Source: Tsukamurella sp. TY48
Lineage (GTDB): Bacteria; Actinomycetota; Actinomycetes; Mycobacteriales; Mycobacteriaceae
Assembly: GCF_019656655.1 (NCBI RefSeq)
Contig: NZ_BPMV01000001.1
Coordinates: 682,001-746,000 of the forward strand
Reading direction: 5' to 3'
Length of the DNA stretch: 64,000 nt
Shown: in pieces, positions 2,438-49,923 of the stretch
Numbering within the stretch: the first letter of the stretch is position 1
Layout of the letters: each line of letters begins with the position of its first letter
The notes under the pieces: generated by a model
Database searches by the model: none
Told to the model about the DNA's origin: nothing
The model's input: only the letters and a program-made list of their open reading frames with translations
Made by a program: the position numbers and the translations under genes

Positions 2438-2441
2438 TCCG

Positions 2442-2809
2442 TGGAGCCGCCGGGAATTGAACCCGGGTCCTCCGTCATTTCTACGGGGCTTCTCCGTGCG
2501 CAGTCCGCTGTGTCTCTACTCGGATCTCCTAGTCTCGCGAACAAGCCAGGATGACGATCCCAGTCGCTGTTTGATGTCCCTCACGATGCCGCGACCGCAC
2601 CGTGAGGTGAATCCCTCTAGCTGATGCCAGGAACCGGGCCGAGGGCGAACCCGGGCTGACAGACTCGCTTTGCTACTTAGGCAGCAAGAGCGAAGTCGCG
2701 CTGATTGGAATCGGCGCTTAATTGGTTGCCGCGACGCTTACGGTGGTCTCCAGCCTGCACCGGCACGCTTCCCCCGCGTCAACAAACGAAGTCGAAACCG
2801 ATCGGCCCC
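2442..2809 (-). ncRNA. ssrA: Transfer-messenger RNA (tmRNA)
   Basis: One-piece tmRNA of about 368 nt. The 5' end GGGGCCG pairs with the 3' CGGCTCC to form the acceptor stem, followed by discriminator A; CCA is not encoded. The T-arm GGTTCAATTCC and the 5' GGTTTCGACT segment are canonical. The resume codon is GCC at 2715-2713, and the frame reads ADSNQRDFALAA then TAA (stop at 2677-2679), the mycobacterial-type proteolysis tag. The tRNA-like part ends 5 nt from the shared terminator. smpB, its protein partner, lies about 340 bp upstream on the same strand. Confidence 0.96.
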
Positions 2810-12051: not shown

Positions 12052-12078
12052 ATGCGCACACGGAACTCGACCCGATGA
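12052..12078 (+). CDS. Leaderless 8-residue upstream ORF coupled to the photolyase gene
   Basis: ATG at 12052 begins MRTRNSTR and stops at a TGA that overlaps the photolyase start as ATGA (12075-12078). A TAGCGT -10 hexamer (12039-12044) ends exactly 7 nt before this ATG, so transcription would begin at or next to it and the mini-ORF would be leaderless. The photolyase start itself has no good ribosome site, so re-initiation after the mini-ORF is the likely route of its translation (inference). Confidence 0.5.
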   Translation: MRTRNSTR

Positions 12079-13436
12079 CGGTGCTCTGGTGGGCCCGGCG
12101 CGATCTGCGACTGCGCGACAATCCCGCGCTGTGCGCGGCGGCCGCGGACGGCCCGGTGGTCCCCCTGGTCGTGATCGACCCCGCCCTCTTCGGCGACGGT
12201 GCCCGCCCGCGCGACGCCTGGTACGCCGCCTCGGTCCTCGCACTCGACGCACAGCTGGACGGCGGCCTGCACCTGCGGACCGGCACCCCCGCCGACGCGG
12301 TCCTCGATGCCGCCCGGGAGGCCGGAGCCACCGCGGTGCACGTGAGCCGGGAGACCACCCCGTTCGGGCGGCGCCGGGATGCCGCCGTGCAGTCCCGGCT
12401 GGCCGAGCACGGCATCGACTGGGTGGAGACCGGATCGCCGTACGCGGTGACTCCGGGCCGGGTGACCAAGGCCGACGGCAGCCCCTACCGCGTCTTCGGC
12501 GCCTTCCAGCGCGCCTGGCACGAGCACCGGTGGCCGGCACCCGCACGGCCCGCGACGCCGCTGCGCTGGGGAGCGCCCGCCGGCGCCGCGGAGCCGGTTC
12601 GGCGATCGCTGCGAGAAGCGGTGGACGCCTGCACGGTTCCCCTCCCACCCGCGGGTGAGGACGCCGCGGCGCGAGCCTGGGACCGCTTCCGCGCGGACGA
12701 CCTGCCGCGCTACGCCGACGACCGCGACCGCCCGGATCTGGACACCTCGTCGCGCCTGTCGCCCTATCTCAAGGTGGGAGCGGTACATCCGCGCACGCTA
12801 CTCGCGGACCTGCGGGACACCGGCGGCGAGGGCGCCGCGAAGTTCGTCTCCGAGCTGTGCTGGCGCGAGTTCTACGCCGACGTCCTGCACCACCATCCGC
12901 GGTCGCTGCGCCACGATCTGACCGATGCCCTCGCCGGGCTGGAGTACGACGCCCCGGGTGACGACTTCGCCGCCTGGCAGCGGGGCGAGACCGGCTTCCC
13001 CCTGGTCGACGCCGGCATGCGACAGCTGCGCGCCGAGGGCTGGATGCACAACCGGGTGCGGATGGTGGTGGCGAGCTTCCTCGGCAAGGACCTGCACCAC
13101 TGGTGGCCGCACGGCGCAGCGCATTTCCTCGATCTGCTGATCGACGGCGATCCGGCGTCGAACGCCCACGGCTGGCAGTGGGTGTCGGGCACCGGCACCG
13201 ATGCCGCACCCTACTTCCGGGTGTTCAACCCCACCGCGCAGGCGGAGAAGTTCGATCCGCGCGGCGATTACGTGCGCCGCTACGTGCCGGAGCTGCGCCA
13301 CCTGGACGGCTCCGCGGCGCTGCATCCGTGGAAACATCCGGACGGGTACGCGCACGGCTATCCCACCCGCATCGTCGACCATGCGCAGGAACGCGAGGAG
13401 ACGCTGCTGCGGTACCGCAGGGCTCGCGGGAAGTAA
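12075..13436 (+). CDS. phr: Deoxyribodipyrimidine photolyase (CPD photolyase)
   Basis: A 453-residue flavoenzyme that splits UV-induced pyrimidine dimers using blue light. It has an N-terminal antenna-binding alpha/beta domain (TVLWWARRDLRLRDNPAL at the start) and a C-terminal FAD domain. Family blocks WREFYADVLHHHP, TGFPLVDAGMRQLRAEGWMHNRVRM, FLGKDLHHWW and DGDPASNAHGWQWVSGTGTDAAPYFRVFNP are all present. Length is normal. Its ATG overlaps the stop of an 8-codon leaderless ORF. Confidence 0.95.
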   Translation: MTVLWWARRDLRLRDNPALCAAAADGPVVPLVVIDPALFGDGARPRDAWYAASVLALDAQLDGGLHLRTGTPADAVLDAAREAGATAVHVSRETTPFGRRRDAAVQSRLAEHGIDWVETGSPYAVTPGRVTKADGSPYRVFGAFQRAWHEHRWPAPARPATPLRWGAPAGAAEPVRRSLREAVDACTVPLPPAGEDAAARAWDRFRADDLPRYADDRDRPDLDTSSRLSPYLKVGAVHPRTLLADLRDTGGEGAAKFVSELCWREFYADVLHHHPRSLRHDLTDALAGLEYDAPGDDFAAWQRGETGFPLVDAGMRQLRAEGWMHNRVRMVVASFLGKDLHHWWPHGAAHFLDLLIDGDPASNAHGWQWVSGTGTDAAPYFRVFNPTAQAEKFDPRGDYVRRYVPELRHLDGSAALHPWKHPDGYAHGYPTRIVDHAQEREETLLRYRRARGK

Positions 13437-13439
13437 CGC

Positions 13440-13480
13440 GACGAAAGTCGTACGCCGCGGACGCACCGCCGCGACCTTCG
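13440..13480. promoter_or_regulatory. Response-regulator-type motif pair upstream of the sensor kinase gene
   Basis: GACGAAAGTCGTA (13440-13452) is one mismatch from the palindrome TACGACTTTCGTA. It is followed by CCGCGACCTTCG (13469-13480). The same two motifs in the same order occur upstream of the transporter gene at 15545. The CGACYTTCG core appears in each. A TACCGT -10 element (13509-13514) lies 7 nt before the kinase ATG. Confidence 0.55.
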
Positions 13481-13521
13481 GGGCATGCCCCGCGCTCGGG
13501 TCGCGCAGTACCGTGATCGGC

Positions 13522-14676
13522 ATGGGTATGAGCGTCTCGACGCAGCGGCTGCAGCGGTGGTGGACCGCCCCCGCCCTGCGAGACGCGGGTTTCGTCGCGC
13601 TGTCCGCCGCGGTGGCCGTGGCCATCGCCGTGACGGAGTGGCGGACGCGGGGCTCGTTCGCGGGCGCGGTGTACCTCGTACTCGGGTTGGCGGGCTCGAT
13701 CGCGCTGTGGTGGCGCCGTCGGTGGCCCCTGGAGGTCACCGTGCTCGGCGGCCTGCTGACGGTGGCGATCGGATTCTGCGCCGCCTCCCTGCTGGGCCTG
13801 TTCACACTCGCGGTCCGCAGGCGGGACCGGGTCCTGATCTTCGCGACGCTGTTCATCACGGCGTGCATCGGCCTTCCCCACCCGTGGACGAGTGCGTCCT
13901 GGGCACCGCGAGACCTGTTGGCCGGAGCGGCCTTCACCGTGGTCTTCGCGCTCTGGGGCTCCTACGTGGGCGCCCGCCGCGACCTGCTGGAATCGCTGCG
14001 CGAGCGCGCGATCCGGGCGGAGGAGGAACGTGAGCTGCGCGCCGCGCAGGCGCGGACGGCGGAGCGCTCGCGCATCGCGCGGGAGATGCACGACGTTCTG
14101 GCCCACAAGGTCTCGCTGATCGCACTGCAGGCGGGCGCGCTCGAGGTGAACGCGGGAGCCGCCGCGCCGAGGGTCGAGCTCGCCGCCGCCGAAATCCGCA
14201 GCACGGCGCACCAGACCCTCGAGGACCTGCGCGGCGTCCTGGGGGTGTTGCGCGGCTCGGAGAGCGAGCCCCTGGTCCCGCAGCCCGGAATCGACGATCT
14301 CCCGCGGCTCGTGGAGCAGTCCCGGGTGGCCGGCACCGAGATCGCGTTGGAGACCGAGCTCGACGGCGGGCAGGTGCCGGACGCCCTGGGCCGCACGGCC
14401 TATCGCATCGTCCAGGAGAGCCTGACGAACGTGCGCAAGCACGCCGGGCCGGCCGTGACCGTGGTCGCTGTCCGGTTGGTGCGGCGGGTGCTCTCCGTGG
14501 AGGTGACCAACGGCCCGTCCCTGGGCGGGGCCGCACATCCGCTCCCCGGTTCGGGCGCCGGCCTGATCGGCCTCTCGGAGCGGGTGCAACTCGCGGGCGG
14601 GTGGATGACCTCCTCCGGTACGCCCGACGGCGGCTGGCGGGTGTACGCCGAACTGCCCGTCCCGGAATCGGACTGA
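13522..14676 (+). CDS. NarL-family sensor histidine kinase
   Basis: A 384-residue membrane sensor kinase. The N-terminal half has about five membrane helices (residues 20-160) with almost no extracytoplasmic domain. A short linker coiled coil leads to the HisKA_3 box with RIAREMHDVLAHKVSLIA (phospho-acceptor H190) and a C-terminal ATPase domain with the GxGLIGLSERV G-box. TACCGT sits 7 nt before the ATG, so the mRNA is probably leaderless. It is followed 52 bp later by its response regulator and then by an RND transporter whose promoter carries the same motif pair. The compact sensor suggests it detects membrane or envelope stress (inference). Confidence 0.9.
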   Translation: MGMSVSTQRLQRWWTAPALRDAGFVALSAAVAVAIAVTEWRTRGSFAGAVYLVLGLAGSIALWWRRRWPLEVTVLGGLLTVAIGFCAASLLGLFTLAVRRRDRVLIFATLFITACIGLPHPWTSASWAPRDLLAGAAFTVVFALWGSYVGARRDLLESLRERAIRAEEERELRAAQARTAERSRIAREMHDVLAHKVSLIALQAGALEVNAGAAAPRVELAAAEIRSTAHQTLEDLRGVLGVLRGSESEPLVPQPGIDDLPRLVEQSRVAGTEIALETELDGGQVPDALGRTAYRIVQESLTNVRKHAGPAVTVVAVRLVRRVLSVEVTNGPSLGGAAHPLPGSGAGLIGLSERVQLAGGWMTSSGTPDGGWRVYAELPVPESD

Positions 14677-15544: not shown

Positions 15545-18500
15545 ATGGCATCGTTTCTGTACAAGGTCGGCAGCTTCTGCTACCGCAAGTGGTGGATGGT
15601 CCTCTCGCTGTGGATCGTCGCGCTCGTGGGCATCGGGATCGCGGGATCATCACTGTCGGAACCCTTCAAGGACGATTTCAACCTGCCCGGCAGCCAGGCG
15701 GTGAAGGCGCAGGAGGTACTGCAGAAGAACTTCCCGCAGACCGCCGAGACACAAGCACCCACCGCCACCGTCGTCTTCCAGTCGAAGGACGGACAACGCC
15801 TCGATCAGGGGCACAACGCCACCGCGATCAACACGGTCGTGGCGAAGCTGCGCGAGGTACCCCAACTCCCCGAGGCCGAGCGCGCCGCGCTCACCAACCC
15901 CGCCGTAGGCGCGGCGGCCGCGGAGAACCTCAGCGGTGACGGCCGGGTCGCCCAGCTCCGCCTCACCTTCGACGGCGTCAAGACGGTCTCCCAGGAATCC
16001 AAGGACGCGGTCGCCGCGGCGAAGCAGGCGGGTGCCGACGCCGGGCTCACCGTGGAAACGGCGGGCGCGGCGAACGAGCATCCGGCCGAACCGCCCGCCG
16101 AAATGATCGGCATTGTCGTGGCGGTCATCGTCATGATCATCACCTTCGCGGCGCTGCTCGCGGCGCTCATGCCGCTCGTCTCCGCGCTGATCGGCATCGC
16201 GCTGTCGACCTCGGTGATCGCGATCGGTACGTCCTTCCTCACGCTGGGCACCTCGACCACCGGACTGTCGATGATGATCGGGCTCGCCGTCGGTATCGAC
16301 TACTCACTGTTCGTGATCTCGCGATATCGGCAGGAGCTGCTGCGTACCGACGACCGGGCGCACGCCGCCGGCCTCGCGGTGGGGACGGCCGGCAGCGCCG
16401 TGGTCTTCGCCGGTGCGACGGTGATCATCGCGCTGTGCGGCCTGTCCATCACCGGCATGTCCTTCCTCAGCCAGATGGGGCTCGGCGCCGCGGTGACCGT
16501 CGCGCTGGCGGTGCTGGTGGCGCTCACGGTGCTGCCCGCGCTGCTCGGTGTGTTCAAGTCCGCGGTCTTCACACCGCGACTGCCCTTTCTGTGGACACCG
16601 GATCAGACCGAGCGCCGCCCGATGGGACAGCGCATCGGCGAGCTGCTCACCAAGCGTCCGCTCCCCTTCCTCATCGGCGCCGTCGCGGTACTCGCGGTGG
16701 CGGCGATCCCGATCGGCAAGATCGAGCTCGGCCTGGACGTGACCTCGCCCTCGGACAAGGCCGCCACGTCGATTCAGAGCGAGGCCTTCGGCGCGGGCAA
16801 GTCCTCCCCGCTCGTCGCGGTGATCGACGATGAGGGCAAGGGCGATCGGAAGGCCGCGGAGACGCGCTTCGCGGACGAGGTGCGCAAGCTCGACGGCCTC
16901 GGCCCGGGCGGGATCATCGGTCCCGTGCCGAACGCGACCGGCAACGCCTCCCAGTTCATCATCGTCCCGGCCTCCGGGCCGTCGACGAAGCAGACGGCGG
17001 ACCTGCTCGCGGAGGTCCGCGATCACGCCGACGCCATCGGCACGGCCACCGGGACGTACGTCGGCATCGGTGGTGCGGCGGCGATCAACGCCGACTTCTC
17101 CGACGCACTGACCTCCAAGCTGCCCCTGTACCTCATCGTGGTGGTGGGACTGGCGATCATCCTGCTGATGATCGTCTTCCGGTCGGTGATCATCCCGGTG
17201 ATCGCCTCGCTCGGCTTCCTGCTGTCGATCGCGGCGACCTTCGGTGTGACGGTCGGCTTCTTCCAGGAGGGCTGGCTCGGCTGGATCAGCCCCGAGGAGC
17301 GCGGCCCGATCCTGGTGTTCATGCCGATCTTCCTGATCGGCATCGTCTTCGGGCTCGCAATGGACTATCAGGTCTTCCTCGTCAGTCGGATGCGCGAGGA
17401 GCACCACCACGGCGCCGAAGCGCAGGAGGCGATCCGCATCGGCTACAGCTCGGGGGCCCGCGTGGTCACCGCAGCGGCGATCATCATGATCTCGGTGTTC
17501 GCCGGGTTCACCCTGTCCACGGAGACCTTCCTCAAGCTCATGGGCTTCTCCATGGCCGCGGCGATCGTCTTCGACGCCTTCCTGGTGCGGATGATCATCA
17601 TGCCCACCACGATGTCGCTCCTGGGCGAGAAGGCCTGGTGGATGCCGCGCTGGCTGGACCGGATCCTGCCCCGGATCGATGTGGAGGGCGATGCGCTGCG
17701 CACCGCCGATGCCGATGCGCCCGTCGCGGAGCACGAGACCGAGGAGATCGCGGCGCCCGCACGCGTCGCCGCCGCTGCGCCCCCGGCACCGGCACCGGCA
17801 CCGGCACCGGCACCGGCACCGGCACCACGCAAACCCGCTCCGGCGCTGCAGGGTTCCCGGAACCAGTCCGTTCTCGACGAGCTCCGCGCCAGCAATCGGG
17901 CATTGGTCGCCGAGCTCTCGGAGCTGCGCTCGGACTACCGCTCGATCGCCGCGCACACCCGACTGCAGGCGGGATCCGTCGTCGATCCGGTCCGCTTCGA
18001 CTCGTCCGGCACCGCGGGCCCCGGGCCCCGCACGGGCACCCTGCACACCCCGCACGGGACCGTCGAGACGCCCGCGTTCGTCGCCCTCGCGCCACTCGCC
18101 GCCGCTCCCGGCATCGATCCGGCATCGATCGGATCCGCGGGCGCACAGGCGATCACGGTCGACGGGGTGCTCATCGACCGCACCACCGGCGCCGAACTGA
18201 TCGACGAGGCGGGCGGATTGCACGGCTTCGCCCGGTGGGACGTCCCGCTGTTCGTGGACGTCTCCGGGGTCGCCGATCCCGCGGCCGCGCTCGCCGCGGC
18301 GCACCGGCTCGGCGGCGACATCGCCTTCGGGCCCGCGGGCGCCGCGATCGCCCGGCGCGCACTGGCGGAACACAATTGGCTCAGTTCGACGCGCAGCGCC
18401 GGTACCTCGCTGTGGCCCACGCTCGGCTCGGACGCCGACGCCTCTGCCGTTCGCGAGTTGCAGCAGCGGCACGACGAGGACCGCGCCTCCGGCGGTCTGG

Positions 18501-19048
18501 GATTCGGCGGATACCGCATCGTGGGTGCCGCCGGCACCGCTCCGGCGAGCCTGATCGACGAACTGGATTCCAGTCGGCCGCGATACCTCAGTGGTGCGCG
18601 CGGCCCCGCGGACCTGTTCGCCGCGGTCGACGCCGGAGTCGACCTGGTCGATTCCGCAGCACCGCTCGAACTCGCGCGGCACGGCATCGTCCTGACCACG
18701 ACGGGCCCGCTGGCGGTGTCCGCACCGCAGCACCGCGGCGACACCCGCCCGCTCGATCCCGCCCCGGAGGCGTGGCCCGCGCCCGGCACGACTCCGATGC
18801 GCGCCTATCTGCACCACCTCTACCGGGTCGACCCGGTAGCCGCGACCGCTATCGCCGCTCGACACAACACCTGGTTCCTCACGAGCCTGGTCGCGCGGAT
18901 GCGGGACGCCCTGATTGCGGGCCGCTACCCGGCGTTCCAGGAGGATTTCCTGGGCCGGTACGGCGCGGCAGCGCCGGGAACCCCGTCACCCCGGCGGATC
19001 CCCGCTCCGGCGGTCCCGGCGCGGACCGATGCGGATTCACACGCCTGA
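15545..19048 (+). CDS. RND/MMPL transporter fused to a degenerate tRNA-guanine transglycosylase-like domain
   Basis: An unusual 1167-residue fusion. Residues 1 to about 700 form a complete MMPL-type RND transporter: one helix near 17-37, a first extracytoplasmic domain, five helices (about 183-340), then the second repeat with a helix near 375, its domain and five helices (about 525-690). An Ala-Pro linker (about 740-765) and a short coiled coil (about 778-810) follow. From R829 the sequence matches TGT: RTGTLHTPHGTVETPAF, AGGLHGFARWDVPLFVD, PRYLSGARGPADLFAAVDAG, ELARHG and RAYLHHLYRVDP. The two catalytic-type Asp positions appear kept (D905, D1036), but the zinc cysteines normally after RPLDP are all absent. 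The stop at 19048 leaves the TGT C-terminus almost full length. Mycobacterial MMPL proteins usually export envelope lipids; the TGT-like part may be a regulatory or scaffold domain (inference). Confidence 0.85.
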   Translation: MASFLYKVGSFCYRKWWMVLSLWIVALVGIGIAGSSLSEPFKDDFNLPGSQAVKAQEVLQKNFPQTAETQAPTATVVFQSKDGQRLDQGHNATAINTVVAKLREVPQLPEAERAALTNPAVGAAAAENLSGDGRVAQLRLTFDGVKTVSQESKDAVAAAKQAGADAGLTVETAGAANEHPAEPPAEMIGIVVAVIVMIITFAALLAALMPLVSALIGIALSTSVIAIGTSFLTLGTSTTGLSMMIGLAVGIDYSLFVISRYRQELLRTDDRAHAAGLAVGTAGSAVVFAGATVIIALCGLSITGMSFLSQMGLGAAVTVALAVLVALTVLPALLGVFKSAVFTPRLPFLWTPDQTERRPMGQRIGELLTKRPLPFLIGAVAVLAVAAIPIGKIELGLDVTSPSDKAATSIQSEAFGAGKSSPLVAVIDDEGKGDRKAAETRFADEVRKLDGLGPGGIIGPVPNATGNASQFIIVPASGPSTKQTADLLAEVRDHADAIGTATGTYVGIGGAAAINADFSDALTSKLPLYLIVVVGLAIILLMIVFRSVIIPVIASLGFLLSIAATFGVTVGFFQEGWLGWISPEERGPILVFMPIFLIGIVFGLAMDYQVFLVSRMREEHHHGAEAQEAIRIGYSSGARVVTAAAIIMISVFAGFTLSTETFLKLMGFSMAAAIVFDAFLVRMIIMPTTMSLLGEKAWWMPRWLDRILPRIDVEGDALRTADADAPVAEHETEEIAAPARVAAAAPPAPAPAPAPAPAPAPRKPAPALQGSRNQSVLDELRASNRALVAELSELRSDYRSIAAHTRLQAGSVVDPVRFDSSGTAGPGPRTGTLHTPHGTVETPAFVALAPLAAAPGIDPASIGSAGAQAITVDGVLIDRTTGAELIDEAGGLHGFARWDVPLFVDVSGVADPAAALAAAHRLGGDIAFGPAGAAIARRALAEHNWLSSTRSAGTSLWPTLGSDADASAVRELQQRHDEDRASGGLGFGGYRIVGAAGTAPASLIDELDSSRPRYLSGARGPADLFAAVDAGVDLVDSAAPLELARHGIVLTTTGPLAVSAPQHRGDTRPLDPAPEAWPAPGTTPMRAYLHHLYRVDPVAATAIAARHNTWFLTSLVARMRDALIAGRYPAFQEDFLGRYGAAAPGTPSPRRIPAPAVPARTDADSHA
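17785..17826 (+). repeat. Seven tandem GGCACC hexamers in the transporter linker
   Basis: Perfect 6-bp repeat, 7 copies, encoding an alternating Ala-Pro stretch between the transporter and the TGT-like domain. Copy-number change by slippage would keep the frame and only alter linker length. Confidence 0.9.
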
Positions 19049-19949
<901 letters not shown>

Positions 19950-23500: not shown

Positions 23501-23574
23501 TAGCGGGGACAGGATTTGAACCTGCGACCTCTGGGTTATGAGCCCAGCGAGCTACCGAGCTGCTCCACCCCGCG
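23501..23574 (-). tRNA. Initiator tRNA-fMet (CAT)
   Basis: 74 nt without encoded CCA. The anticodon is CAT within GGGCTCATAACCC, giving the run of G-C pairs in the anticodon stem that marks initiators. The 5' C faces a T at the end of the acceptor stem, an unpaired 1:72 position as required for formylation. D-arm AGCAGCTCGGTAGCTC and T-arm GGTTCAAATCC are standard. Confidence 0.95.
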
Positions 23575-33019: not shown

Positions 33020-35113
33020 TCAACTGTGTTCGGCGACGAGGGCGAGTACCTCGTCGCCGTACTTCTCCGCCTTGGTGGCGCCGATGCCGTTGATCCGCAC
33101 CAGCTGGGCGCGGCTGCGGGGCTGGTGCTCGGCGATCGCGAACAGGGTGGCGTTGGAGAAGATCGTGTACGGCGGGATCTGCTGATCGCGGGCCTGCCCC
33201 GTCCGCCAGATCTTGAGCGCCTCCACCAGTGCGTCGTTGAGGTCGGACGGGCAGTCCTCGCAGCGCGAGCGCAGCTTCTCCTCGCGGGTGTCGAGGATGC
33301 CGCCGCACACCCGGCAGATGTCCGACGAGCGGCGCTTGCCCTTCGACGGTCCCGCATCCGCGACCCGTGGACGGCCGGCATCGGCCTGCGCGGAGACGAC
33401 GTCGAGGAATCGGGTGCGCTTGCGCGTCTTGCGGCCGCCCTCGTTGCGCGCCAGGGCCCACGACAGGTGCAGGTGCTCGCGGGCGCGGGTGACGCCCACG
33501 TACAGCAGGCGGCGTTCCTCCTCGATGGGCTCGGGATCGCCCTTCGCGATGGCCTGCGCGATCGGCACCGAGCCCTCGGTGAGGCCGACCAGGAAGACGG
33601 CGTCCCACTCCAGGCCCTTGGCGGCGTGCAGCGAGGAGAGCGTGACCCCCTCCATGGTGGGCGGGTGCTTGGCCTCGGCGCGGGCACGCAGCTCGCCGAT
33701 CAGTTCGGCGAGGGTGAGCCCGGGACGCTGTGCGGACAGGTCGGCCGTGAGGTCGACGAGCGCGTTGAGCGCCTGCCACCGCTCCAGGGCACGGGCACCG
33801 TCGGGCGGCTCCGCGGTACGGCCGAGCGGTTCGAGCGCACCCTCGACCATCGACATCAGTTCGGCACCGGAGACGCCGCCGAACTGCCCCGCGCGGGAGG
33901 TGAGCTCACGGACGGCCTGGCCGATCTCGGGACGCTCGAAAAAGGCGCTGCCGCCGCGCACCTGGTACGGGATACCGGCCTCCGTGAGCGCGGCTTCGTG
34001 GACGGCCGATTGGGCGTTGATCCGGTAGAGGATGGCGATCTCGCTGGCGGGGACGCCCGAGGCCATGAGCTCGCGGATCCGCTTGGCGACCAGTTTGGCC
34101 TCGGCGGGCTCGTCGTCGGCCTCGGCGTAGATCGGTGCCGGACCGTCGGGACGCTGGCCGATGAGTTCCAGCCGGGTGCCGGCCACGCGCCCCTGCGCCG
34201 CGCCGATCACCTTGTTGGCCAGCGAGACCACCTGCGGTGTGGAGCGGTAGTCGCGCTGCAGCCGCACGATCACGGCGTCCTCGAAGCGGCGGGTGAAGTC
34301 GAGCAGGTAGTTCGGGGTGGCGCCGGTGAAGGAGTAGATGGTCTGGTTCGCGTCTCCCACCACGGTGAGATCGTCGCGGTCGCCGAGCCAGGCGTTGAGG
34401 AGTTGCTGCTGCAGCGGGGTGACGTCCTGGTACTCGTCGACCACGAAGCTGCGGTAGCGATCGCGGAACTCGTCCGCCACCACGGCGTTGTCCTCCAGGA
34501 TGGCGGCGGTCACCAGGATGAGGTCGTCGAAATCGAGGAGGCGGTTGCCGTCCTGGTCGGTCTTGCGGCGCTCGTAGGCGGCGTACACGTCGGCGACGGT
34601 GGCCGGGGCCAGCGGCGCGGTGCGGCCCGCCTGTTCGACGGCCAGCGCGTAGGTCTCCGGGGTGACCAGCGAGGCCTTGGCCCAGTCGATCTCCGCGAGC
34701 AGATCGCGCACCGTGTCCGTCTCCGGGCGCAGGTCGCAGTCGCGTGCCGCCCGGCCGACGATGGGGAACTTGTTGTCCAGCAGTTCCCAGCGGGTGTCGC
34801 CGATGGCACGCGGCCAGAAGTAGCGCAGCTGCCGCATGGCGGCGGCGTGGAAGGTGACGGCCTGGACACCGGGCGTCCCGTCGCCCCCGCCGATGCCGAG
34901 GTTGCGCAGCCGGGCGCGCATCTCCCCCGCCGCGCGGGAGGTGAAGGTGACGGCGAGCACCTGGCCCGCAGCGACGTGACCGGTTTCCACCTGGTGTGCG
35001 ATGCGGTGGGTGATCGTGCGCGTCTTGCCCGTGCCCGCACCCGCCAGCACGCACACCGGTCCGCGCGGTGCGAGTACCGCTTCCTGCTGCTCCGGGTCCA
35101 GTGCTTCGATCAC
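33020..35113 (-). CDS. uvrD2: UvrD2 DNA helicase with tetracysteine and HRDC domains
   Basis: A 697-residue superfamily 1A helicase. Walker A GAGTGKT is at 25-31; helicase motifs include FVVDEYQDVTPLQQQLL, GDANQTIYSFTGA and VTRAREHLHLS. After the core comes a tetracysteine segment (CRVCGG...CEDC, probable zinc site) and a C-terminal HRDC domain. This layout is specific to actinobacterial UvrD2, essential in M. tuberculosis. I chose GTG at 35113 because AATACT is exactly 7 nt upstream and it places the Walker A motif at the family position. Divergent from mrx1. Confidence 0.95.
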   Translation of the reverse strand: MIEALDPEQQEAVLAPRGPVCVLAGAGTGKTRTITHRIAHQVETGHVAAGQVLAVTFTSRAAGEMRARLRNLGIGGGDGTPGVQAVTFHAAAMRQLRYFWPRAIGDTRWELLDNKFPIVGRAARDCDLRPETDTVRDLLAEIDWAKASLVTPETYALAVEQAGRTAPLAPATVADVYAAYERRKTDQDGNRLLDFDDLILVTAAILEDNAVVADEFRDRYRSFVVDEYQDVTPLQQQLLNAWLGDRDDLTVVGDANQTIYSFTGATPNYLLDFTRRFEDAVIVRLQRDYRSTPQVVSLANKVIGAAQGRVAGTRLELIGQRPDGPAPIYAEADDEPAEAKLVAKRIRELMASGVPASEIAILYRINAQSAVHEAALTEAGIPYQVRGGSAFFERPEIGQAVRELTSRAGQFGGVSGAELMSMVEGALEPLGRTAEPPDGARALERWQALNALVDLTADLSAQRPGLTLAELIGELRARAEAKHPPTMEGVTLSSLHAAKGLEWDAVFLVGLTEGSVPIAQAIAKGDPEPIEEERRLLYVGVTRAREHLHLSWALARNEGGRKTRKRTRFLDVVSAQADAGRPRVADAGPSKGKRRSSDICRVCGGILDTREEKLRSRCEDCPSDLNDALVEALKIWRTGQARDQQIPPYTIFSNATLFAIAEHQPRSRAQLVRINGIGATKAEKYGDEVLALVAEHS

Positions 35114-35207
35114 ATCATCGAGTATTCCAGCCGGGTCCGACAGGTCGCGGTCCGCGGGCTCCGACGCCGTGGGAAGAACTGCGAACCGTGCATGGTTGAG
35201 TAACGGT

Positions 35208-35447
35208 ATGAGCCAGCTGACCATGTACACCACGTCGTGGTGCGGATACTGCAACCGCCTCAAGACCGGCCTGAAGGCCAACGGCATCGAGTGGACCGAG
35301 ATCAACATCGAAGAGGATCCCTCGGCCGCGGAGTTCGTGCAGGGCGTGAACGGCGGCAATCAAACGGTGCCCACCGTGAAGTACGCCGACGGCAGCACGG
35401 CCACCAACCCGTCGCTCGCGGACGTCAAGCGCAAGCTCGGGGTCTAG
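35208..35447 (+). CDS. mrx1: Mycoredoxin-1
   Basis: A 79-residue glutaredoxin-like protein that reduces mycothiol mixed disulfides. The redox motif CGYC is at 12-15, the cis-proline segment TVPTV at about 53-57 and the conserved DGS turn near 61-63. Length matches Mrx1. Its TAG stop shares the palindrome CTAG with the stop of the convergent nudC gene. Confidence 0.95.
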   Translation: MSQLTMYTTSWCGYCNRLKTGLKANGIEWTEINIEEDPSAAEFVQGVNGGNQTVPTVKYADGSTATNPSLADVKRKLGV

Positions 35448-43243: not shown

Positions 43244-46200
43244 CTACTCCTGCCCCGCGCTCGTGATGAGCAGTTCCAGGCCGGCGTGATCCAGCAGATC
43301 GGCAGGAGCGACCGTCTCGCCGGATCGGACGTAGAAGAACGCGGCCCGCACGTCGTCGACCGGCACGTCCCGCAACCGGGCCCAGGCCAGACGGTACGCC
43401 GCCAACTGCACCGCCGCAGCGCGCTCGTCGGCCGGTTCGGACGGCCGCACCCCGGTCTTCCAGTCCACCACGGTGAAGCCACCACCGGGATCGCGGAAGA
43501 CGGCATCCATCCGGCCACGAACCACGGTGCCTGCCGCGGCGATCTCGAAGGGCACCTCGATATCGACGGGTGTGCGCGCCGCCCACTCGCCGGCCTCGAA
43601 CATCCGCTGCAGCAGCGCGAGGTTCTCGTCGGCACCGGCGTCTCCATCAGCGGCGCCGGGCAGTTCATCGAGATCGAGCAATCGCGAGGCCCCGTACCGC
43701 CGCTCCAGCCAGGCGTGGAAAGCGGTGCCGCGCCGCGCATACGGGTTCGGCCGGAAGGGCACCGGCCGGCGCAACCGCCGGGCGAAAGCCTCCGGGCTGC
43801 GCCGTAGCTCCACGAGCTGACTCACCGAGACCTCGCGCGGCACAGCCACTTCCAGATCGAGCGCCGCCTGCCGCTCGCGCTCGGCGAGCAGCGCCGTGAC
43901 ATCCGCCGCCCAGCCGTGCGGATCGTGCTCCGCCGCCGCATCTACGGCCTCGACCTCGTCCGGTTCCGCGAGCGCGGCGAGCACCAGCGCAGCTCCGGCG
44001 TCCGCGGCCGGACGGTGCGCGGCCAGGAAGTCCCGCGGCCACGGTGCCTGGACCGGCTCAGCCTCCAACGGGTTCGTCGCGTCCTCGACCGGTGTCTGCG
44101 CCCACTGCCCCACCGCCTCCGGGGCGTGCTCCCGGGCGCGTTCGAGGAAGCGCGAGGGCGCCTTCGGCGTCTTGACGTCCTCGCTCCAGTAATGGCCGGA
44201 CAGCAGCAGCGTGCCCTGGGTACGGGTGACCGCCACGTAGAACAGGCGCTCATCCTCGTGCATGTTCATCGCCTTGAGCGACGCACGATGGCGATCGAGC
44301 GCGTCCTCGAGGTCCTTGCGGTTGTTGCAGTCCGCGAGGTCGAGCCGCGGCACACCATCGGACTCACCGGGTTCCGCGACATCGCCGCGCAGGTCCGGCG
44401 GCAGCTCCGCGGGCGTCGACAGCCACGTGGGCATGGCCCGATTCGAGGGGAAGATGCCCTCCGACAGGTGCGGGACGGCCACCACGTCCCACTCGAGGCC
44501 CTTCGCGGAGTGCACCGTGAGCACCTGCACCCGATCCGTGGCCACCTCCACATCACCCGGGGTGAGGCCGCCCTCCACCGCCTCGGCGGCCGCGAGGAAG
44601 GACAGCAGGCCCGGCAGGGTGGCCGTGGGCCGTTCCGCGTAGGAGACCACCACATCGGCGAAGGCGTCGAGATGCTCACGGCCGGTGGCCCGGCCGCCCA
44701 ATTGGCGCGCGGCCCGGATCCGGGTCTCGATGCTCACGCCCAGGACCCGCTCCGCCTCGGCCACGATCTCCGGCAGCGGATGCCCCAATCGCTCGCGAAC
44801 ATTGCGGATCTCGCGGTCCAGCGAGCGGATCTTCGCAAGGCCGGCGGCCGAGTAGTCGGCATCCGGCCCGGGATCGGCGATGGCGTCGCCGAGGCCCGCC
44901 GCGTCCAACAACTCCGCGGGCAGCGTGGCATCGAGTGCCGCGTCCAGCTGTTCCGCCGTGGTGACCAGGCCCGTGGCCGCCCGGCCGGTGCCGTGCGCGA
45001 TGCGCCGGGCCCGGTTCCACAACGCCCGGAGGTCGGCCGCGCCGAGCTGCCAGCGCGGCCCGGTGAGCAGGCGCATGGCCGCCGTGCCCGCGAGCGGCTC
45101 GACCGCCAGCCGCAGCAGCGAGACCACATCGCGCACCTCGGGCGTGTGCAGCAGGCCGCCCAGGCCCACCACCTCGACGGGCACGCCGCGCTCCCCCAGC
45201 GCCGCGGCCAAGCCCGCGGAATCGGCATTGCGCCGCACCAGCACCGCCACGGTGGGGGGCGGCTCCTGCGCGTCGATCCGTTCCCGCCACAGCGCTGCGA
45301 TCGCATCGGCCACCCAGGCGCGCTCATCGATCACCGTGGGGTGGAGGGCGATCCGCAGATCGCCCACGGGCGCATCCGGCCGGGCCTTGAGCTCGGACAC
45401 CGGGACACCGCGGCTGCGCAGGTCCTCGGACACGGCGTTCGCCAGGCTCAGCGCCCCGGTGGGATTGCGCCAACTGGTGAGCAGTTCGCGGCGCGGGGCG
45501 GGGGCGCCATCGGACTGCGGGAAATCCGTGGCGAAGCGCGGCAGGTTCGCCGCGGAAGCGCCGCGCCAGCCGTAGATCGACTGGATCGGATCGCCCACCG
45601 CCGTGACGGCGGCGGCGCCCTGCTCCCCGCCGAACAGTGAGGCCAACAGCATCCGTTGCGCGTGGCCCGTGTCCTGGTACTCGTCGAGCAGGACGGCGCC
45701 GAACCGCGCCCGCTCCAGCGCCGCCACATCGGGATTGGCGAGCGCGAGCTGCGCCGCGAGCCCCATCTGGCCGCCGAAGTCGAGCACCTCGCGCGCCCGC
45801 ATCTCCGCCGCGACCGCCCGTACCAGCGGGATCAGCGCGCGACGCTGCTCCTGCACCTCGGCCGCCTTGAGCAGTGTCGCGTTCGGGGTGGCCCGTTGTC
45901 GCGGCCCGGGCGGCAACAGCCCGATGAGGCGCTCGAGCTCGTCGTCGCTCGCCTCCAGCACATCGGGGGTCACCAGGTGGTCGGCGAGCGCCCCGGACAG
46001 CCCCAGCACCTGCTCGGTGAGGGTCGCCGGATTCTTCTCGGTCTCCAGCGCCTCGTCCCAGCCGGTGACCACGTCGAAGGCGATCTGCCACCGCTCCGTC
46101 TCCGAGACCAGGCGCACCGTGGGCTCGACCGGCAGCAGCATGCCGTAATCGCCCAGCAGGCGCCCGGCGTAGGCGTGATAGGTGCTGATCTCGGGCTCGA

Positions 46201-46567
46201 CGGTGCGCAGCAGCACCCGAAGCTCGCCGGTGGGGTCGATCCGCTCCAGCGCGGGGGCCGCGCCGAGCCGGGAGAGCCGCTTGCGCACCCGGATCATCAG
46301 CTGTTGCGCGGCCTTCCGGGTGAAGGTGAGGCCGAGCACCTGGTCGGGGGTGACGTACCGGTTGGCGATGAGCCACACCACGCGGCCCGCCATCGTCTCG
46401 GTCTTCCCGGCGCCGGCACCGGCCACCACGAGACACGGGCCCAGCGGCGCCTCGATCACCGCGCGCTGCTCCTCGGTGGGCGCGAAGGCCTGCCCCAGTT
46501 CGTGGGCGAGATCCTCCGCGGAGATCAGTGGCGCGTGGGGGAAGCCCCGGGGCACAGTCTCAGTCAT
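43244..46567 (-). CDS. adnB: ATP-dependent helicase-nuclease AdnB
   Basis: A 1107-residue lead subunit of AdnAB, the mycobacterial motor-nuclease that resects double-strand breaks. Walker A GAGAGKT is at 50-56; helicase motifs include LLDEYQDTGHAQRMLL, GDPIQSIYGWRGAS and YVAVTRTQGTLLLS. The C-terminal RecB-type nuclease carries GRMDAVFRDPGGGFTVVDWKTG. The ATG overlaps the adnA stop by 8 bp, so the subunits are translationally coupled. Confidence 0.95.
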   Translation of the reverse strand: MTETVPRGFPHAPLISAEDLAHELGQAFAPTEEQRAVIEAPLGPCLVVAGAGAGKTETMAGRVVWLIANRYVTPDQVLGLTFTRKAAQQLMIRVRKRLSRLGAAPALERIDPTGELRVLLRTVEPEISTYHAYAGRLLGDYGMLLPVEPTVRLVSETERWQIAFDVVTGWDEALETEKNPATLTEQVLGLSGALADHLVTPDVLEASDDELERLIGLLPPGPRQRATPNATLLKAAEVQEQRRALIPLVRAVAAEMRAREVLDFGGQMGLAAQLALANPDVAALERARFGAVLLDEYQDTGHAQRMLLASLFGGEQGAAAVTAVGDPIQSIYGWRGASAANLPRFATDFPQSDGAPAPRRELLTSWRNPTGALSLANAVSEDLRSRGVPVSELKARPDAPVGDLRIALHPTVIDERAWVADAIAALWRERIDAQEPPPTVAVLVRRNADSAGLAAALGERGVPVEVVGLGGLLHTPEVRDVVSLLRLAVEPLAGTAAMRLLTGPRWQLGAADLRALWNRARRIAHGTGRAATGLVTTAEQLDAALDATLPAELLDAAGLGDAIADPGPDADYSAAGLAKIRSLDREIRNVRERLGHPLPEIVAEAERVLGVSIETRIRAARQLGGRATGREHLDAFADVVVSYAERPTATLPGLLSFLAAAEAVEGGLTPGDVEVATDRVQVLTVHSAKGLEWDVVAVPHLSEGIFPSNRAMPTWLSTPAELPPDLRGDVAEPGESDGVPRLDLADCNNRKDLEDALDRHRASLKAMNMHEDERLFYVAVTRTQGTLLLSGHYWSEDVKTPKAPSRFLERAREHAPEAVGQWAQTPVEDATNPLEAEPVQAPWPRDFLAAHRPAADAGAALVLAALAEPDEVEAVDAAAEHDPHGWAADVTALLAERERQAALDLEVAVPREVSVSQLVELRRSPEAFARRLRRPVPFRPNPYARRGTAFHAWLERRYGASRLLDLDELPGAADGDAGADENLALLQRMFEAGEWAARTPVDIEVPFEIAAAGTVVRGRMDAVFRDPGGGFTVVDWKTGVRPSEPADERAAAVQLAAYRLAWARLRDVPVDDVRAAFFYVRSGETVAPADLLDHAGLELLITSAGQE

Positions 46568-49500
46568 CGGTCACGCTCCGACCCTTGTCGACCACGGGGC
46601 AGCACGCAGCGACAGCGCAGTGCTGGCAGGAGGCGTTGAGCGTGGCGGCGAACTCGGGCCCGCGGGTGCGCCGCGCCGCCTCGCGGATCACGCCGAGCCA
46701 TTCGTCGACGTCCGCCGGTGACAGGGCATCCTGTTCGCGCACGGTGGAGCCGGTCTTGTTGTGCGGCTTCGCGACGTACAGCAGTTTGCCGCCGCCCGGC
46801 GTCTCCGGAACGCCGCCGAGACCGCCGTGCGCGATGGCCACCTGGTAGGTGCGCAGCTGCGCGTGCGCCTGGCCGTCCGCCTGGCTCGGCAGCGTGCGCC
46901 CGGTCTTGACGTCGACGACCACGGTGCGGCCCAGGGCGTCCCGCTCCAGCCGGTCGACGCGGCCGCGGATCTGCACGTCCGGCGCACCGCCGTCCCCCTC
47001 GATCACCGCATCGATGGGCACCTCGACCCCGGCCTCGGTGAGCTCGGACCGGCTGCCCGCGAGCCACGCGCGGAAGGATTCGAGCATCTCCTCGGTGCGC
47101 ACCAGCTCCCGCCGGGCGAACCAGTCCGCCTCCAGATCGACCCGGTCCCAGACCTTCTCGAGGGAGTGGGTGACCTCATCCTTCGGGATGCGGCCGGCCA
47201 CCGCCTGCACCAGGGTGTGCACCAGGTTGCCCGTGGCCTGCTTCGCGGAATCGCCGTCGCTGCCGCCGAACCGCTCCAGCATCCACCGCAGCGCACAGGC
47301 CGACAGCGCCTCCACGTTCGAGGGCGAAAGCGCCACCGGGCCGTCGTCGGGCTGCCACAGCGGATCGTCGGTACTCGCCCCGGCGAGGCCGTACCAGGTG
47401 TCCGGATGGGCGCCGGGCACCCGGTCCGCCGCAAGGCGGGCGAGCTGCCGCGCCGCGTGCTCGCGCTCGGCTTCGTCGCGCTCCGGATCGCACACCGCGG
47501 CGCGGAGAGTGGCCACCAGGGTGCGCAGGTCGAGAGCGGCGGCGGGCTCCGATTCCACCGCGGGGGTGTAGGTCTCGGGGTCCTCGTCGCCCGACGGTGC
47601 GATGCCCTGCAGGAAGCGGGAGGGCACCAGGTCACCGTCGCCGTCGGCGGTGTCGACCGCGGTGATGAGCAGCGTGCGGCGGGCCCGCGAGCACGCCACC
47701 AGCAGCAGCCGGCGTTCCTCCGCGAGCAGCGGCAACGAACGCGAGACGGTGGGCAGCGCCACCGGATCGATCCCGTCGAGCGCGTCGAGCAGTTCCTCCG
47801 TGCCCAGCAGTCCGCCGCGGCGGCGCAGGTTCGGCCACCGGCCCTCCTGCACCCCGGCGACGGCCACCACGTCCCATTCGCGGCCGGCGGCGCCGTGCGC
47901 CGAGAGCAGCGTGACGCCGGGGGTGGTGGGCGCATCACGCCGGATCCCCGATCGTGGGATCTGCAGCTGTTCCATGTACTCGATGAACCGCGCAGGCGAG
48001 GCCGTGGGCAGCGTATCGGTGAAATCGGCTGCGGCGTCGAACAATCCCATCACCGCATCGAGATCGCGGTCGGCCTGTTCGCCGAGTCCGCCCCCGCGGA
48101 GCGCGAGCGCGCCCCACTTGGCGGCCAGGCCGGTGACCGCCCACGCCGCCCAGAGCACCTCCTCGACGGTGCCGTCCGCGGCGGCGGCGCGCGCCGCCCG
48201 CACCGCGGCGAGCACCCGCTCGACCGGTTCGGCCTCCAACTCGGTGAGCGCGGCGCGGTAGGGCGCGAAATCCAGGGTCCCAGCGATCACCGCGCCGAGG
48301 ATCTCCGCCGACCCGCGCTCGTCGGAGGGCTCCGCGCGGCGCACACCCCGGCGGACGCGGCGCAGGGTGAGCGGGTCTCCGCCGCCCACGGGACCGGAGA
48401 GCAGGGCCACCGCCTCGGCCGGGTCCAGCGCATCGGGATCGCAGGCGGCGCGGAGTACTGAGAGCAGGGCGTGCACGGCCCGCTGCCGGGCGAGCGGTAC
48501 GTCGTCGGCAGCGACGGTGACCGGCACCCCGGCATAGGCGAGGGCGCGGCGCAGCGGGGCGACCGCCGCCGATACCGACCGCACCACGATCGCCATGTCC
48601 TCCCAGGGCACCCCGCCGTGCACGTGCTCGCGGCGCAGCATCGCCGCGATCGCGTCGGCCTCCTTCGCGGGCGTGGAGAACAACCGGACCGCCGCCGATC
48701 CCGGGCGCGGCCGCTCGGGTGCGACGGCGGTGAACCGGTTCGGCAGCCGCGACGAGATCCGGTTCACGGCACCCGCCACCTCTTCCCCGAACCGGAAACT
48801 GCGTTCCAGCAGGATGTCCCGGGCGGCCGGTACATCGAGCGACTGCAGGAACCGGGTGCTGGCGCCGCGGAAGGAGTTGATCGCCTGATCGGGATCGCCC
48901 GCCACCACGGTGAGTTCGGTGCCGGTGCCCAGCAGCCGGATCAGCGCGGAGGCCAGCGGATCGAGGTTCTGCGCATCGTCGACCAGCAGGAACCGGATGC
49001 GTTCGCGCTGCTGCGCGAGCAGCGCCTCATCGGTGGCCAGCGCGGTGACGGCGGCGTCGATCAGCTCTGCGGCATCGACCGCCGGGGCCACCGCCTGCGG
49101 GCCGGCGAGCCCGACCGAACCGCGCAGCAAGGTGGTCTCCTGATACTCGCGCAGCGCCGCCGCGGCGGCGGCCCACTCCGGGCGCTGGTGCCGGGCCGCG
49201 AGCGCATCGATCTCCTCGGGCCCCGCGCCGCGCTGCGCCGCCTGCGCGAAGAGATCGCGCAGGGCGCCGGCGAATCCACCGGTCACGAGGGCCGGCCGCA
49301 GGCGCTCGGGCCAGAAGGCTCCGCCGTCGTCGACGTGGCCGCGCAGCAGCTCGCGCACCACCGCGTCCTGTTCCGAGCCCGTGATCAGCCGCGGCGGCGG
49401 CGAACCCGTGTGTGCGGCCTGCAGCCGCAGCACCGCGAAGGCCAGCGAGTGCACGGTGCGCACCAAGGGCTCCCCCGAGGCGTGCACACCCGCGCGGCCG

Positions 49501-49838
49501 TGCTCGGCCAGGACCCGCGCCGACAGTTCGCGGCGCAACGCCACCGCCGACCGCTTGCTGCCGGTGAGGATGAGCACCGACTCGGGCTCGACGAACGGAT
49601 CGGTGAGCTTGGCGACCGCGATGTCGATGAGCGCGGAGGTCTTCCCGGTGCCCGGCCCGCCCCGGATGCGGTACGGCGCCCAGCCGCCCACATCGAGCGG
49701 CAGGGCACCCGCCGCGGGGGCCACCAATTCCGCGATCGGCCCGCCCCACTCGCGGGCGGCCGGTGGCTGCGGCGCGGTGTACTGCAGCGACAGGCGCGGG
49801 CGACGGCTGCGCGCCGCACCACCACTCGCCTCCGCCAT
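46560..49838 (-). CDS. adnA: ATP-dependent helicase-nuclease AdnA
   Basis: A 1092-residue partner of AdnB. Walker A GGPGTGKT is at 60-67. The helicase core is less canonical than AdnB, and the C-terminal nuclease has GRTVVVDVKTGRTLPSQADGQAHAQLRTYQ. Cysteines in ALSACALRWML and near the end (CQHCAVAACC) likely bind an Fe-S cluster that staples the nuclease domain. I chose the ATG at 49838 with GGAGG upstream. It is divergent from lipV by 85 bp. Confidence 0.93.
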   Translation of the reverse strand: MAEASGGAARSRRPRLSLQYTAPQPPAAREWGGPIAELVAPAAGALPLDVGGWAPYRIRGGPGTGKTSALIDIAVAKLTDPFVEPESVLILTGSKRSAVALRRELSARVLAEHGRAGVHASGEPLVRTVHSLAFAVLRLQAAHTGSPPPRLITGSEQDAVVRELLRGHVDDGGAFWPERLRPALVTGGFAGALRDLFAQAAQRGAGPEEIDALAARHQRPEWAAAAAALREYQETTLLRGSVGLAGPQAVAPAVDAAELIDAAVTALATDEALLAQQRERIRFLLVDDAQNLDPLASALIRLLGTGTELTVVAGDPDQAINSFRGASTRFLQSLDVPAARDILLERSFRFGEEVAGAVNRISSRLPNRFTAVAPERPRPGSAAVRLFSTPAKEADAIAAMLRREHVHGGVPWEDMAIVVRSVSAAVAPLRRALAYAGVPVTVAADDVPLARQRAVHALLSVLRAACDPDALDPAEAVALLSGPVGGGDPLTLRRVRRGVRRAEPSDERGSAEILGAVIAGTLDFAPYRAALTELEAEPVERVLAAVRAARAAAADGTVEEVLWAAWAVTGLAAKWGALALRGGGLGEQADRDLDAVMGLFDAAADFTDTLPTASPARFIEYMEQLQIPRSGIRRDAPTTPGVTLLSAHGAAGREWDVVAVAGVQEGRWPNLRRRGGLLGTEELLDALDGIDPVALPTVSRSLPLLAEERRLLLVACSRARRTLLITAVDTADGDGDLVPSRFLQGIAPSGDEDPETYTPAVESEPAAALDLRTLVATLRAAVCDPERDEAEREHAARQLARLAADRVPGAHPDTWYGLAGASTDDPLWQPDDGPVALSPSNVEALSACALRWMLERFGGSDGDSAKQATGNLVHTLVQAVAGRIPKDEVTHSLEKVWDRVDLEADWFARRELVRTEEMLESFRAWLAGSRSELTEAGVEVPIDAVIEGDGGAPDVQIRGRVDRLERDALGRTVVVDVKTGRTLPSQADGQAHAQLRTYQVAIAHGGLGGVPETPGGGKLLYVAKPHNKTGSTVREQDALSPADVDEWLGVIREAARRTRGPEFAATLNASCQHCAVAACCPVVDKGRSVTDD

Positions 49839-49923
49839 GTGTCCTCCTTCGCGCCCGTCACATCCGATCCCATCACAGACCACCGACACCTCCGCGCGCG
49901 GCGCGGCGCGGCACAATGGGCTC

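What the first reader, a model, noticed from the sequence alone, without database searches (positions are those of the whole stretch)
15545..19048. RND/MMPL lipid-type transporter fused to a catalytically suspect tRNA-guanine transglycosylase domain
Residues 829 to about 1150 align along the whole TGT core (start motif, GGLHGFARWD block, PRYLSGARGPADLFAAVDAGVD, RPLDP, RAYLHHL, the terminal helix). The two active-site Asp positions are apparently kept (D905, D1036), but all zinc cysteines are gone. A TGT fold on a membrane transporter is not an architecture I know. It could sense a nucleotide/queuine-like ligand or act as a cytosolic scaffold. The nearby two-component system appears to control it.
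Basis: partly seen in the sequence, partly recalled or inferred. Interest (0 to 1): 0.88.

Follow-up and report, generated by a model that had tools for sequence, protein, structure and literature searches.

The report
Lipid exporter with dead tRNA-enzyme tail
A membrane exporter in Tsukamurella bacteria ends in a broken-down copy of a tRNA-modifying enzyme that may be kept as a pairing handle rather than a catalyst, and related copies of this tail sit on several different exporters in the same genus.

Summary
ORF 15545-19048 (1167 aa) is an MMPL/RND transporter followed by a Pro/Ala linker, a coiled coil and a genuine but degenerate TGT domain (PF01702, 147.7 bits). The genus is Tsukamurella. 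This genome has three TGT genes, all transporter tails: A, catalytic-type TGT on an MMPL; B, degenerate TGT on an MFS; C, the finding, in 8 of 16 genus genomes. Fusions A and B are in print (PMC11130926, 2024); I found no report of C, of the degeneracy, or of the tail on five transporter kinds. A looks like a fused cmpL4-tgt gene pair. In C the pocket is gone, and D1036 is Glu in the 7 other homologues, as in eukaryotic QTRT2. Missing zinc cysteines mean little: 8 of 21 free-standing TGTs lack them. C keeps 13 of 16 near-invariant columns of the dimer subdomain (38 of 148 elsewhere) and a GCN4-like coil, but overall that subdomain evolves as fast as its neighbours in C. Best reading: a pseudo-TGT pairing tail, perhaps for catalytic tail A; a decaying passenger is the main rival. 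Partner and function are untested; structure prediction was off.

The parts
15545..17689 (+). MMPL/RND transporter part (residues 1-715), of the cmpL4-like family
   Evidence: Pfam MMPL E=2.3e-90; tree
17690..17869 (+). Pro/Ala-rich low-complexity linker
   Evidence: sequence; fast evolving, dN/dS 0.43
17870..17947 (+). conserved coiled coil (residues 776-801), a/d = L,L,N,L,L,L,Y,I in the window copy
   Evidence: dN/dS 0.106 for residues 776-815
17981..18967 (+). degenerate TGT domain (residues 813-1141): catalytic loop and pocket lost, old invariant columns of the dimer subdomain mostly kept
18257..18259 (+). D905, equivalent to Z. mobilis D102, kept in 8 of 8 class C
18650..18652 (+). D1036, equivalent to D280; Glu in the other 7 class C sequences
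13486..14676 (+). histidine kinase of the neighbouring two-component system (start approximate and inferred; the listed ORF starts at 13201 inside the photolyase gene)
   Evidence: HisKA_3; homologues align from about residue 96 in L163, somewhat earlier in L038
14729..15382 (+). NarL/LuxR-type response regulator upstream of the transporter
   Evidence: Response_reg + GerE; distribution

Best explanation
The protein is a cmpL4-like MMPL exporter whose C-terminus, cytosolic by MMPL topology (recalled), carries a pseudo-TGT. Origin (sequence evidence): an mmpL-tgt gene pair fused in the Tsukamurella lineage to give class A, the only intact-looking TGT I saw in the genus; copies of the coil + TGT tail are also found on other exporters, where they have lost the catalytic pocket but kept the coil and most of the old invariant residues of the dimer-forming subdomain. 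Mechanism (inferred): the tail dimerises, through the coil and what remains of the TGT two-fold interface, with itself or with the catalytic class A tail (and the class B tail), holding exporters together at the membrane and possibly tying TGT activity to exporter state, much as inactive QTRT2 partners QTRT1 in eukaryotes. Transcription is probably set by the adjoining two-component system (inferred from gene order).
For: Pocket lost: C keeps 51 of 164 near-invariant TGT columns but 1 of 14 pocket/tRNA columns (p=0.066, marginal). Zinc/dimer subdomain + C helix: 13 of 16 near-invariant columns kept in C (p=2e-5), 16 of 16 in B (p=3e-6) (bins drawn after seeing the alignment). Hot-spot F92 7/8, Y330 7/8, H333 8/8 in C; hot spot defined in PMC5395182 (passages). 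Coil with Asn at an 'a' position in 40 of 40 tails examined; coil dN/dS 0.106 in C, close to the transporter's 0.093; TGT 0.37, below 1. D280 to E as in QTRT2 (PMC6165067, passages). In class B the dimer segment is slower (dN/dS 0.152) than the segment before it (0.280). Tail on five host kinds: MMPL-A, MMPL-C, and MFS hosts nearest OtrB/Tcr3, EmrB/TcmA and LfrA. Same-locus C-type MMPL without tail in G012. Fusion origin: single stop codon between in-frame mmpL and tgt in two other genera; class A MMPL clusters with 6 of the 7 tgt-near MMPLs in the tree.
Against: No dimer, partner or expression was observed; structure prediction was off. In class C the dimer segment as a whole is not slower (dN/dS 0.440) than the segment before it (0.426), and the TGT C-half (0.511) is faster than the N-half (0.291). 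Hot-spot W326 is lost in 7 of 8 C rows (P5, A1, L1; one W) and F92 is Ala in all 14 class B rows, so neither class keeps the full hot spot. The C tail's dN/dS is four times its transporter's. G005's copy is broken by an insertion and 8 of 16 genomes lack the gene. Fold stability alone could explain retained columns. Class A might yield free TGT from an internal start; not tested.
Confidence: 0.42

Rival explanations
1. Decaying passenger: the tail was added by chance to a second exporter, does nothing, and is being lost.
For: TGT dN/dS 0.37 (C-half 0.51, dimer segment 0.44) against 0.093 for the transporter; tail-less relative in G012; IS-broken gene in G005; gene in only 8 of 16 genomes.
Against: Tail reading frame open in all 8 class C copies; coil as constrained as the transporter; old invariant columns of the dimer subdomain kept; similar tails on five exporter kinds.
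Confidence: 0.33
2. Q-precursor channelling: the transporters import queuine/preQ1 and pass it to the attached TGT (the reading behind PMC11130926's candidate list).
For: TGT fused to MMPL and MFS; no QueA found in 16 of 16 genus genomes, so salvage is likely; mmpL near tgt in other genera.
Against: C and B tails lack the pocket; a QPTR (PF02592) is present in 16 of 16; the MFS hosts are nearest to drug exporters; an MMPL of C. propinquum did not transport preQ1 in E. coli, expression not excluded (PMC11130926); C. glutamicum CmpL4 acts in envelope lipid biogenesis (PMC4287177, passages).
Confidence: 0.08
3. Residual ligand or RNA sensor: the degenerate barrel binds a base or tRNA without catalysis and gates the exporter.
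For: D102 kept in 8 of 8 and G230 in 6 of 8; TGT N-half dN/dS 0.29 in C, lower than the C-half.
Against: D156, Q203 and the 106/107 loop are lost in all 8, and R286 is acidic in all 8; pocket columns are the least kept group, though at marginal significance.
Confidence: 0.1
4. Assembly or annotation artefact joining two genes.
For: One relative's assembly breaks close to the linker (G003, contig-edge locus L044).
Against: 37 of 41 TGT loci in 16 genus genomes show tail and transporter in one frame; the other 4 are contig edges (L044, L054) or lie in one 83%-complete genome (L070, L071).
Confidence: 0.01

Closest known systems
Tpau_4044 (UniProt D5UNC0), MMPL-TGT fusion of Tsukamurella, PMC11130926
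   Same: MMPL + TGT architecture, same genus; corresponds to class A by architecture and position in G010 (inferred, record not fetched)
   Different: Class A TGT keeps all pocket residues examined; its MMPL is a different clade; the finding is a separate paralogue with a dead pocket
Tpau_0550 (UniProt D5USC3), MFS-TGT fusion, PMC11130926
   Same: transporter with degenerate TGT tail and the same coil (class B; correspondence inferred)
   Different: MFS host; TGT less degenerate; degeneracy is not mentioned in the sections I read (2.2, 2.3)
cmpL4 (NCgl0228) with downstream tgt in Corynebacterium glutamicum, PMC4287177 (passages)
   Same: MMPL gene directly upstream of tgt; likely ancestral arrangement of class A
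   Different: two separate genes; its sequence was not compared here
QTRT2, non-catalytic subunit of eukaryotic TGT (PMC6165067, passages)
   Same: pseudo-TGT, catalytic Asp to Glu, degenerate queuine pocket
   Different: not on a transporter, pairs with QTRT1; here the partner is unknown and the origin independent (inferred)
MmpL3 trehalose monomycolate exporter
   Same: MMPL fold; best PDB relatives of the transporter part
   Different: scores 219.8 bits against the MmpL3 equivalog cut-off of 1400; not MmpL3

Membership tests
TGT fold family PF01702 | score above the gathering cut-off | tested here: met
   147.7 against 26.3 bits
Functional Tgt (TIGR00430 equivalog) | score above the equivalog cut-off | tested here: not met
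   118.1 against 306.75 bits; class A passes with 379.3
Functional Tgt (TIGR00430 equivalog) | catalytic D102/D280 and pocket D156, Q203, Y/F106 | tested here: not met
   Class C: D102 8/8, but D280 1/8 (the window), D156 0/8, Q203 0/8, 106/107 absent in 8/8
Functional Tgt (TIGR00430 equivalog) | three-cysteine + histidine zinc site | tested here: not met
   cysteines absent, H349 kept in 8/8; not decisive since 8 of 21 free-standing TGTs also lack the cysteines
MMPL family PF03176 | MMPL stretches above cut-off | tested here: met
   303.3 against 20.5 bits, 2 stretches
MmpL3 TMM exporter (NF052608) | score above the equivalog cut-off | tested here: not met
   219.8 against 1400 bits
Published Tsukamurella transporter-TGT fusions | transporter + C-terminal TGT in one frame | tested here: met
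QTRT2-like pseudo-subunit (works-like) | lost pocket with Asp to Glu at the nucleophile | tested here: met
   class C E7 D1 at D280; the window copy itself keeps Asp, so for this copy only the lost pocket is met
QTRT2-like pseudo-subunit (works-like) | heterodimer with a catalytic TGT | not testable with these tools
   structure prediction off; needs biochemistry
Queuosine-precursor transporter | moves preQ0/preQ1/queuine | not testable with these tools
   a separate QPTR is present in 16 of 16 genomes

The most novel reading that the evidence does not exclude
Tsukamurella uses a duplicated tRNA-modifying enzyme as a portable pairing tag: catalytic and pseudo-TGT tails on MMPL and MFS exporters heterodimerise through a shared GCN4-like coil and the TGT two-fold, building mixed exporter assemblies and coupling tRNA queuosine modification to envelope export; a bacterial, membrane-bound counterpart of QTRT1/QTRT2 that arose independently.
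Probability: 0.2. Interest if true: 0.88.

Novelty: new variant of a known kind. Interest (0 to 1): 0.6.

Why it matters
It shows a housekeeping tRNA enzyme becoming, within one genus, a tail found on several exporters, with loss of catalysis on all hosts but one. If the tails pair, it would link tRNA modification to envelope and drug export and give a compact model of how pseudo-enzymes evolve. It also warns that fusion-based prediction of queuosine transporters from these proteins rests partly on dead TGT domains.

Tried and rejected
Structure prediction of the coil + TGT tail (alignment A2) was not accepted (tool off), so fold and interface claims rest on sequence alignment only. The QueC search gave matches of 53-56 profile positions in 15 of 16 genomes, mostly in ~690-aa frames; I read these as another protein that shares the nucleotide-binding start, not QueC (inference). 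The Qng1 search rang nowhere, controls included, so says nothing. Two free-standing TGTs with long frames in other genera (G202, G076; L110, L111) have no Pfam match besides TGT, so they look like chance high-GC frames, not fusions. The RNA-family scan found nothing at the gene. A rooted order of tail transfers is not claimed: long branches meet in the TGT tree. Literature: searches listed no paper that I recognised as describing class C, tail degeneracy or tail spread; of the listed papers I opened only PMC11130926, which mentions the fusions.

Rows left out of counts: dN/dS used 6 of 8 C (L044, L050 out), 13 of 16 A (L054, L064, L070 out) and 13 of 15 B (L056, L071 out). The TGT tree used 40 rows: 9 of 21 free-standing, 8 of 16 A plus L056, 13 of 14 further B, L057, L067 and 7 of 8 C (L044 out). 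Residue table: A 15 of 16 (L054 is a contig-edge fragment), B 14 of 15, with L056, L057 and L067 shown apart. The coil search pattern itself demands Asn and mostly Leu; it matched all 40 tails tried (15 A, 17 B-type and other MFS, 8 C; L054 was not tried). Host transporter not seen in frame for L044, L054, L070, L071.
Full report
What is there. ORF 15545-19048 (+) encodes 1167 aa: an MMPL transporter (residues 1-715), a Pro/Ala linker, a coiled coil (776-801) and a TGT domain (813-1141). Pfam scores both domains far above cut-off (MMPL 303.3, TGT 147.7 bits). The best PDB relatives are MmpL3 for the first part and bacterial TGT for the second (that these chains are Zymomonas mobilis TGT is recalled). 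The match to TGT comes in two stretches; the middle (the loop after D102 through the D156 region) is shortened or deleted.

Whose genome. The species of the window itself was not identified.

Three TGT genes, all tails. The window's genome has three TGT loci, each fused to a transporter. Across 16 genus genomes I count 41 TGT loci: class A 16; class B 15 (14 plus the less degenerate L056), on an MFS nearest OtrB/Tcr3; class C 8; and two more MFS hosts, L057 (nearest EmrB/TcmA) and L067 (nearest LfrA). The MFS hosts score below the curated cut-offs of the named drug transporters; L035, L056 and L057 pass the DHA2 subfamily cut-off and L067 does not, so these names give kinship only. Tail and transporter share one frame in 37 of 41; the other four are contig edges (L044, L054) or lie in one 83%-complete genome (L070, L071), and the class of L071 rests on its tail alone. 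I saw no certain free-standing TGT gene in the genus. In one search, 173 of the 175 matched genomes outside the genus have one TGT match and two (G206, G219) have two, 24 of 24 have one. Listed frames there run from 392 to 767 aa except 1066 and 872, which have no second Pfam domain. The match list was truncated.

Origin. Of 19 loci of other genera, 8 have an MMPL gene upstream of tgt on the same strand within about 6 kb, 5 of them immediately adjacent; some loci were cut by contig ends. In two (L104, L107) the frames are separated by one stop codon. In the MMPL tree (38 chosen rows) class A falls with 6 of the 7 tgt-near MMPLs (96/95; with four of them 92/81), the seventh (L091) being unresolved, whereas the class C MMPLs form a separate clade (100/100) in the same larger group. 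C. glutamicum cmpL4 has tgt downstream (PMC4287177, passages only). So class A is best read as a fusion of an old gene pair, and class C as a different MMPL carrying the same kind of tail.

Tail transfer. The coil + TGT tail is shared by all classes. In the TGT tree the degenerate tails B, C, L057 and L067 group together (100/100), with L056 on the side of A and the free-standing enzymes; L067's tail sits inside class B (98/89) although its host MFS is of another kind. Long branches meet in this tree (L057 with class C), so the order of events is uncertain. G009, G010, G011, G014 and G015 show no cassette between the flanking genes; G007 and G008 were not examined there. A response-regulator match at E<=1e-60 occurs in the 8 genomes with class C (85-100% identity) and otherwise only in G008 (53%).

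Is the TGT alive? Class A keeps every pocket residue examined in 15 of 15 rows. Class C keeps D102 (8 of 8) but has Glu at D280 in 7 of 8 (the window is the exception), none of D156 and Q203, and no 106/107 loop. It fails the Tgt equivalog cut-off (118.1 against 306.75) that class A passes (379.3). The zinc cysteines are no guide: 8 of 21 free-standing TGTs with intact pockets lack them. Human QTRT1 Asp279 is likewise replaced by Glu in QTRT2 (PMC6165067, passages).

What is kept. Of 164 columns near-invariant in 36 free-standing and class A TGTs, class C keeps 51 and class B 78 (kept = at least 85% of rows). Of 14 pocket/tRNA columns that I chose, C keeps 1 and B 3 (p=0.066 and 0.051, marginal). 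Of 16 columns in the zinc/dimer subdomain and C-terminal helix C keeps 13 and B keeps 16 (p=2e-5 and 3e-6). These bins were drawn after seeing the alignment, and columns are not independent. Against this, the dimer segment as a whole evolves in class C at dN/dS 0.440, no slower than the segment before it (0.426), while in class B it is slower (0.152 against 0.280). So class B fits a kept interface better than class C does. The aromatic dimer hot spot of bacterial TGT is F92 with W326, Y330 and H333 of the mate (PMC5395182, passages). C keeps F92 (7/8), Y330 (7/8) and H333 (8/8) but W326 in only 1 of 8; B keeps Y330, H333 and Phe at 326 but has Ala for F92. Each pseudo-tail thus keeps one half of the cluster, which would suit pairing with class A; this is a pattern, not a test. 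The coil has a/d residues I/L, L, N, L/I, L, L, Y in the 40 tails examined, with one Ile and one Met as exceptions; Asn at an 'a' position favours parallel two-stranded coils (recalled from GCN4). dN/dS, transporter/coil/TGT: class C 0.093, 0.106, 0.37; class A 0.286, 0.074, 0.094; class B 0.154, 0.138, 0.205 (NG86 pairwise medians).

Queuosine context. No QueA in 16 of 16 genomes (control rings in 9 of 14), QPTR in 16 of 16. So the genus probably salvages a Q precursor with its own QPTR, and class A is its only intact-looking TGT; this is inference. It weakens the idea that the MMPL or MFS parts are the importers.

Mechanism. I read class C as an exporter (the Asp-Tyr pairs of the MmpL3 proton relay, recalled, are present as IDYSLF and MDYQVF) with a pseudo-TGT pairing tail. 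Self-pairing or pairing with the A/B tails is inferred. A decaying passenger is the main rival: the tail is faster than its transporter, the gene is absent from 8 of 16 genomes, and the G005 copy is interrupted by an insertion carrying an ISL3-type transposase.

Known or new. Quaiyum et al. 2024 (PMC11130926; outline and abstract, sections 2.2 and 2.3, passages) list TGT fused to MFS (Tpau_0550) and MMPL (Tpau_4044) in Tsukamurella as transporter candidates. Those are classes B and A by architecture and by order in G010 (inferred). Sections 2.2 and 2.3 do not mention class C or the dead pockets; its supplementary tables were not seen. My searches listed nothing else that I recognised as on the subject in the held library, which lacks most subscription journals.

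Noticed in passing
L017, L019, L020, L021, L022, L024, L028, L032 (other genera of the same family): Free-standing TGTs with intact catalytic pockets lack all three zinc cysteines (8 of 21 examined): zinc-site-less TGTs in part of the family.
   Followed up: partly
L057 (G008) and L067 (G013): Two further MFS exporters (nearest EmrB/TcmA and LfrA) carry the same coil + degenerate TGT tail.
   Followed up: partly
L056 (G008): Class B orthologue with a less degraded TGT (Glu at D102, Asp kept at D156 and D280): looks like an evolutionary intermediate.
   Followed up: partly
L163 5411-9113 (G005): Class C gene interrupted by an insertion with an ISL3-type transposase and an AraC/DJ-1-type regulator ORF; the copy is broken.
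   Followed up: partly
L168 3953-6142 (G012): Tail-less C-type MMPL at the same locus, followed by a MerR-family regulator; no close match to the two-component regulator in that genome.
   Followed up: yes
window 13201-13486: The listed histidine kinase ORF starts inside the photolyase gene (12075-13436); homology begins about residue 96 in L163, so the true start is probably near 13430-13490.
   Followed up: no
window 19518-19949: Transglycosylase-like (resuscitation-promoting-factor type, name recalled) gene downstream, syntenic in relatives.
   Followed up: no
window 2439-2809 (-) and 23501-23574 (-): tmRNA and a tRNA gene.
   Followed up: no
window 43244-50297 (-) and 33020-35359 (-): Two adjacent UvrD helicase + PD-(D/E)XK nuclease proteins (AdnAB-like, name recalled) and a UvrD-HRDC helicase.
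   Followed up: no
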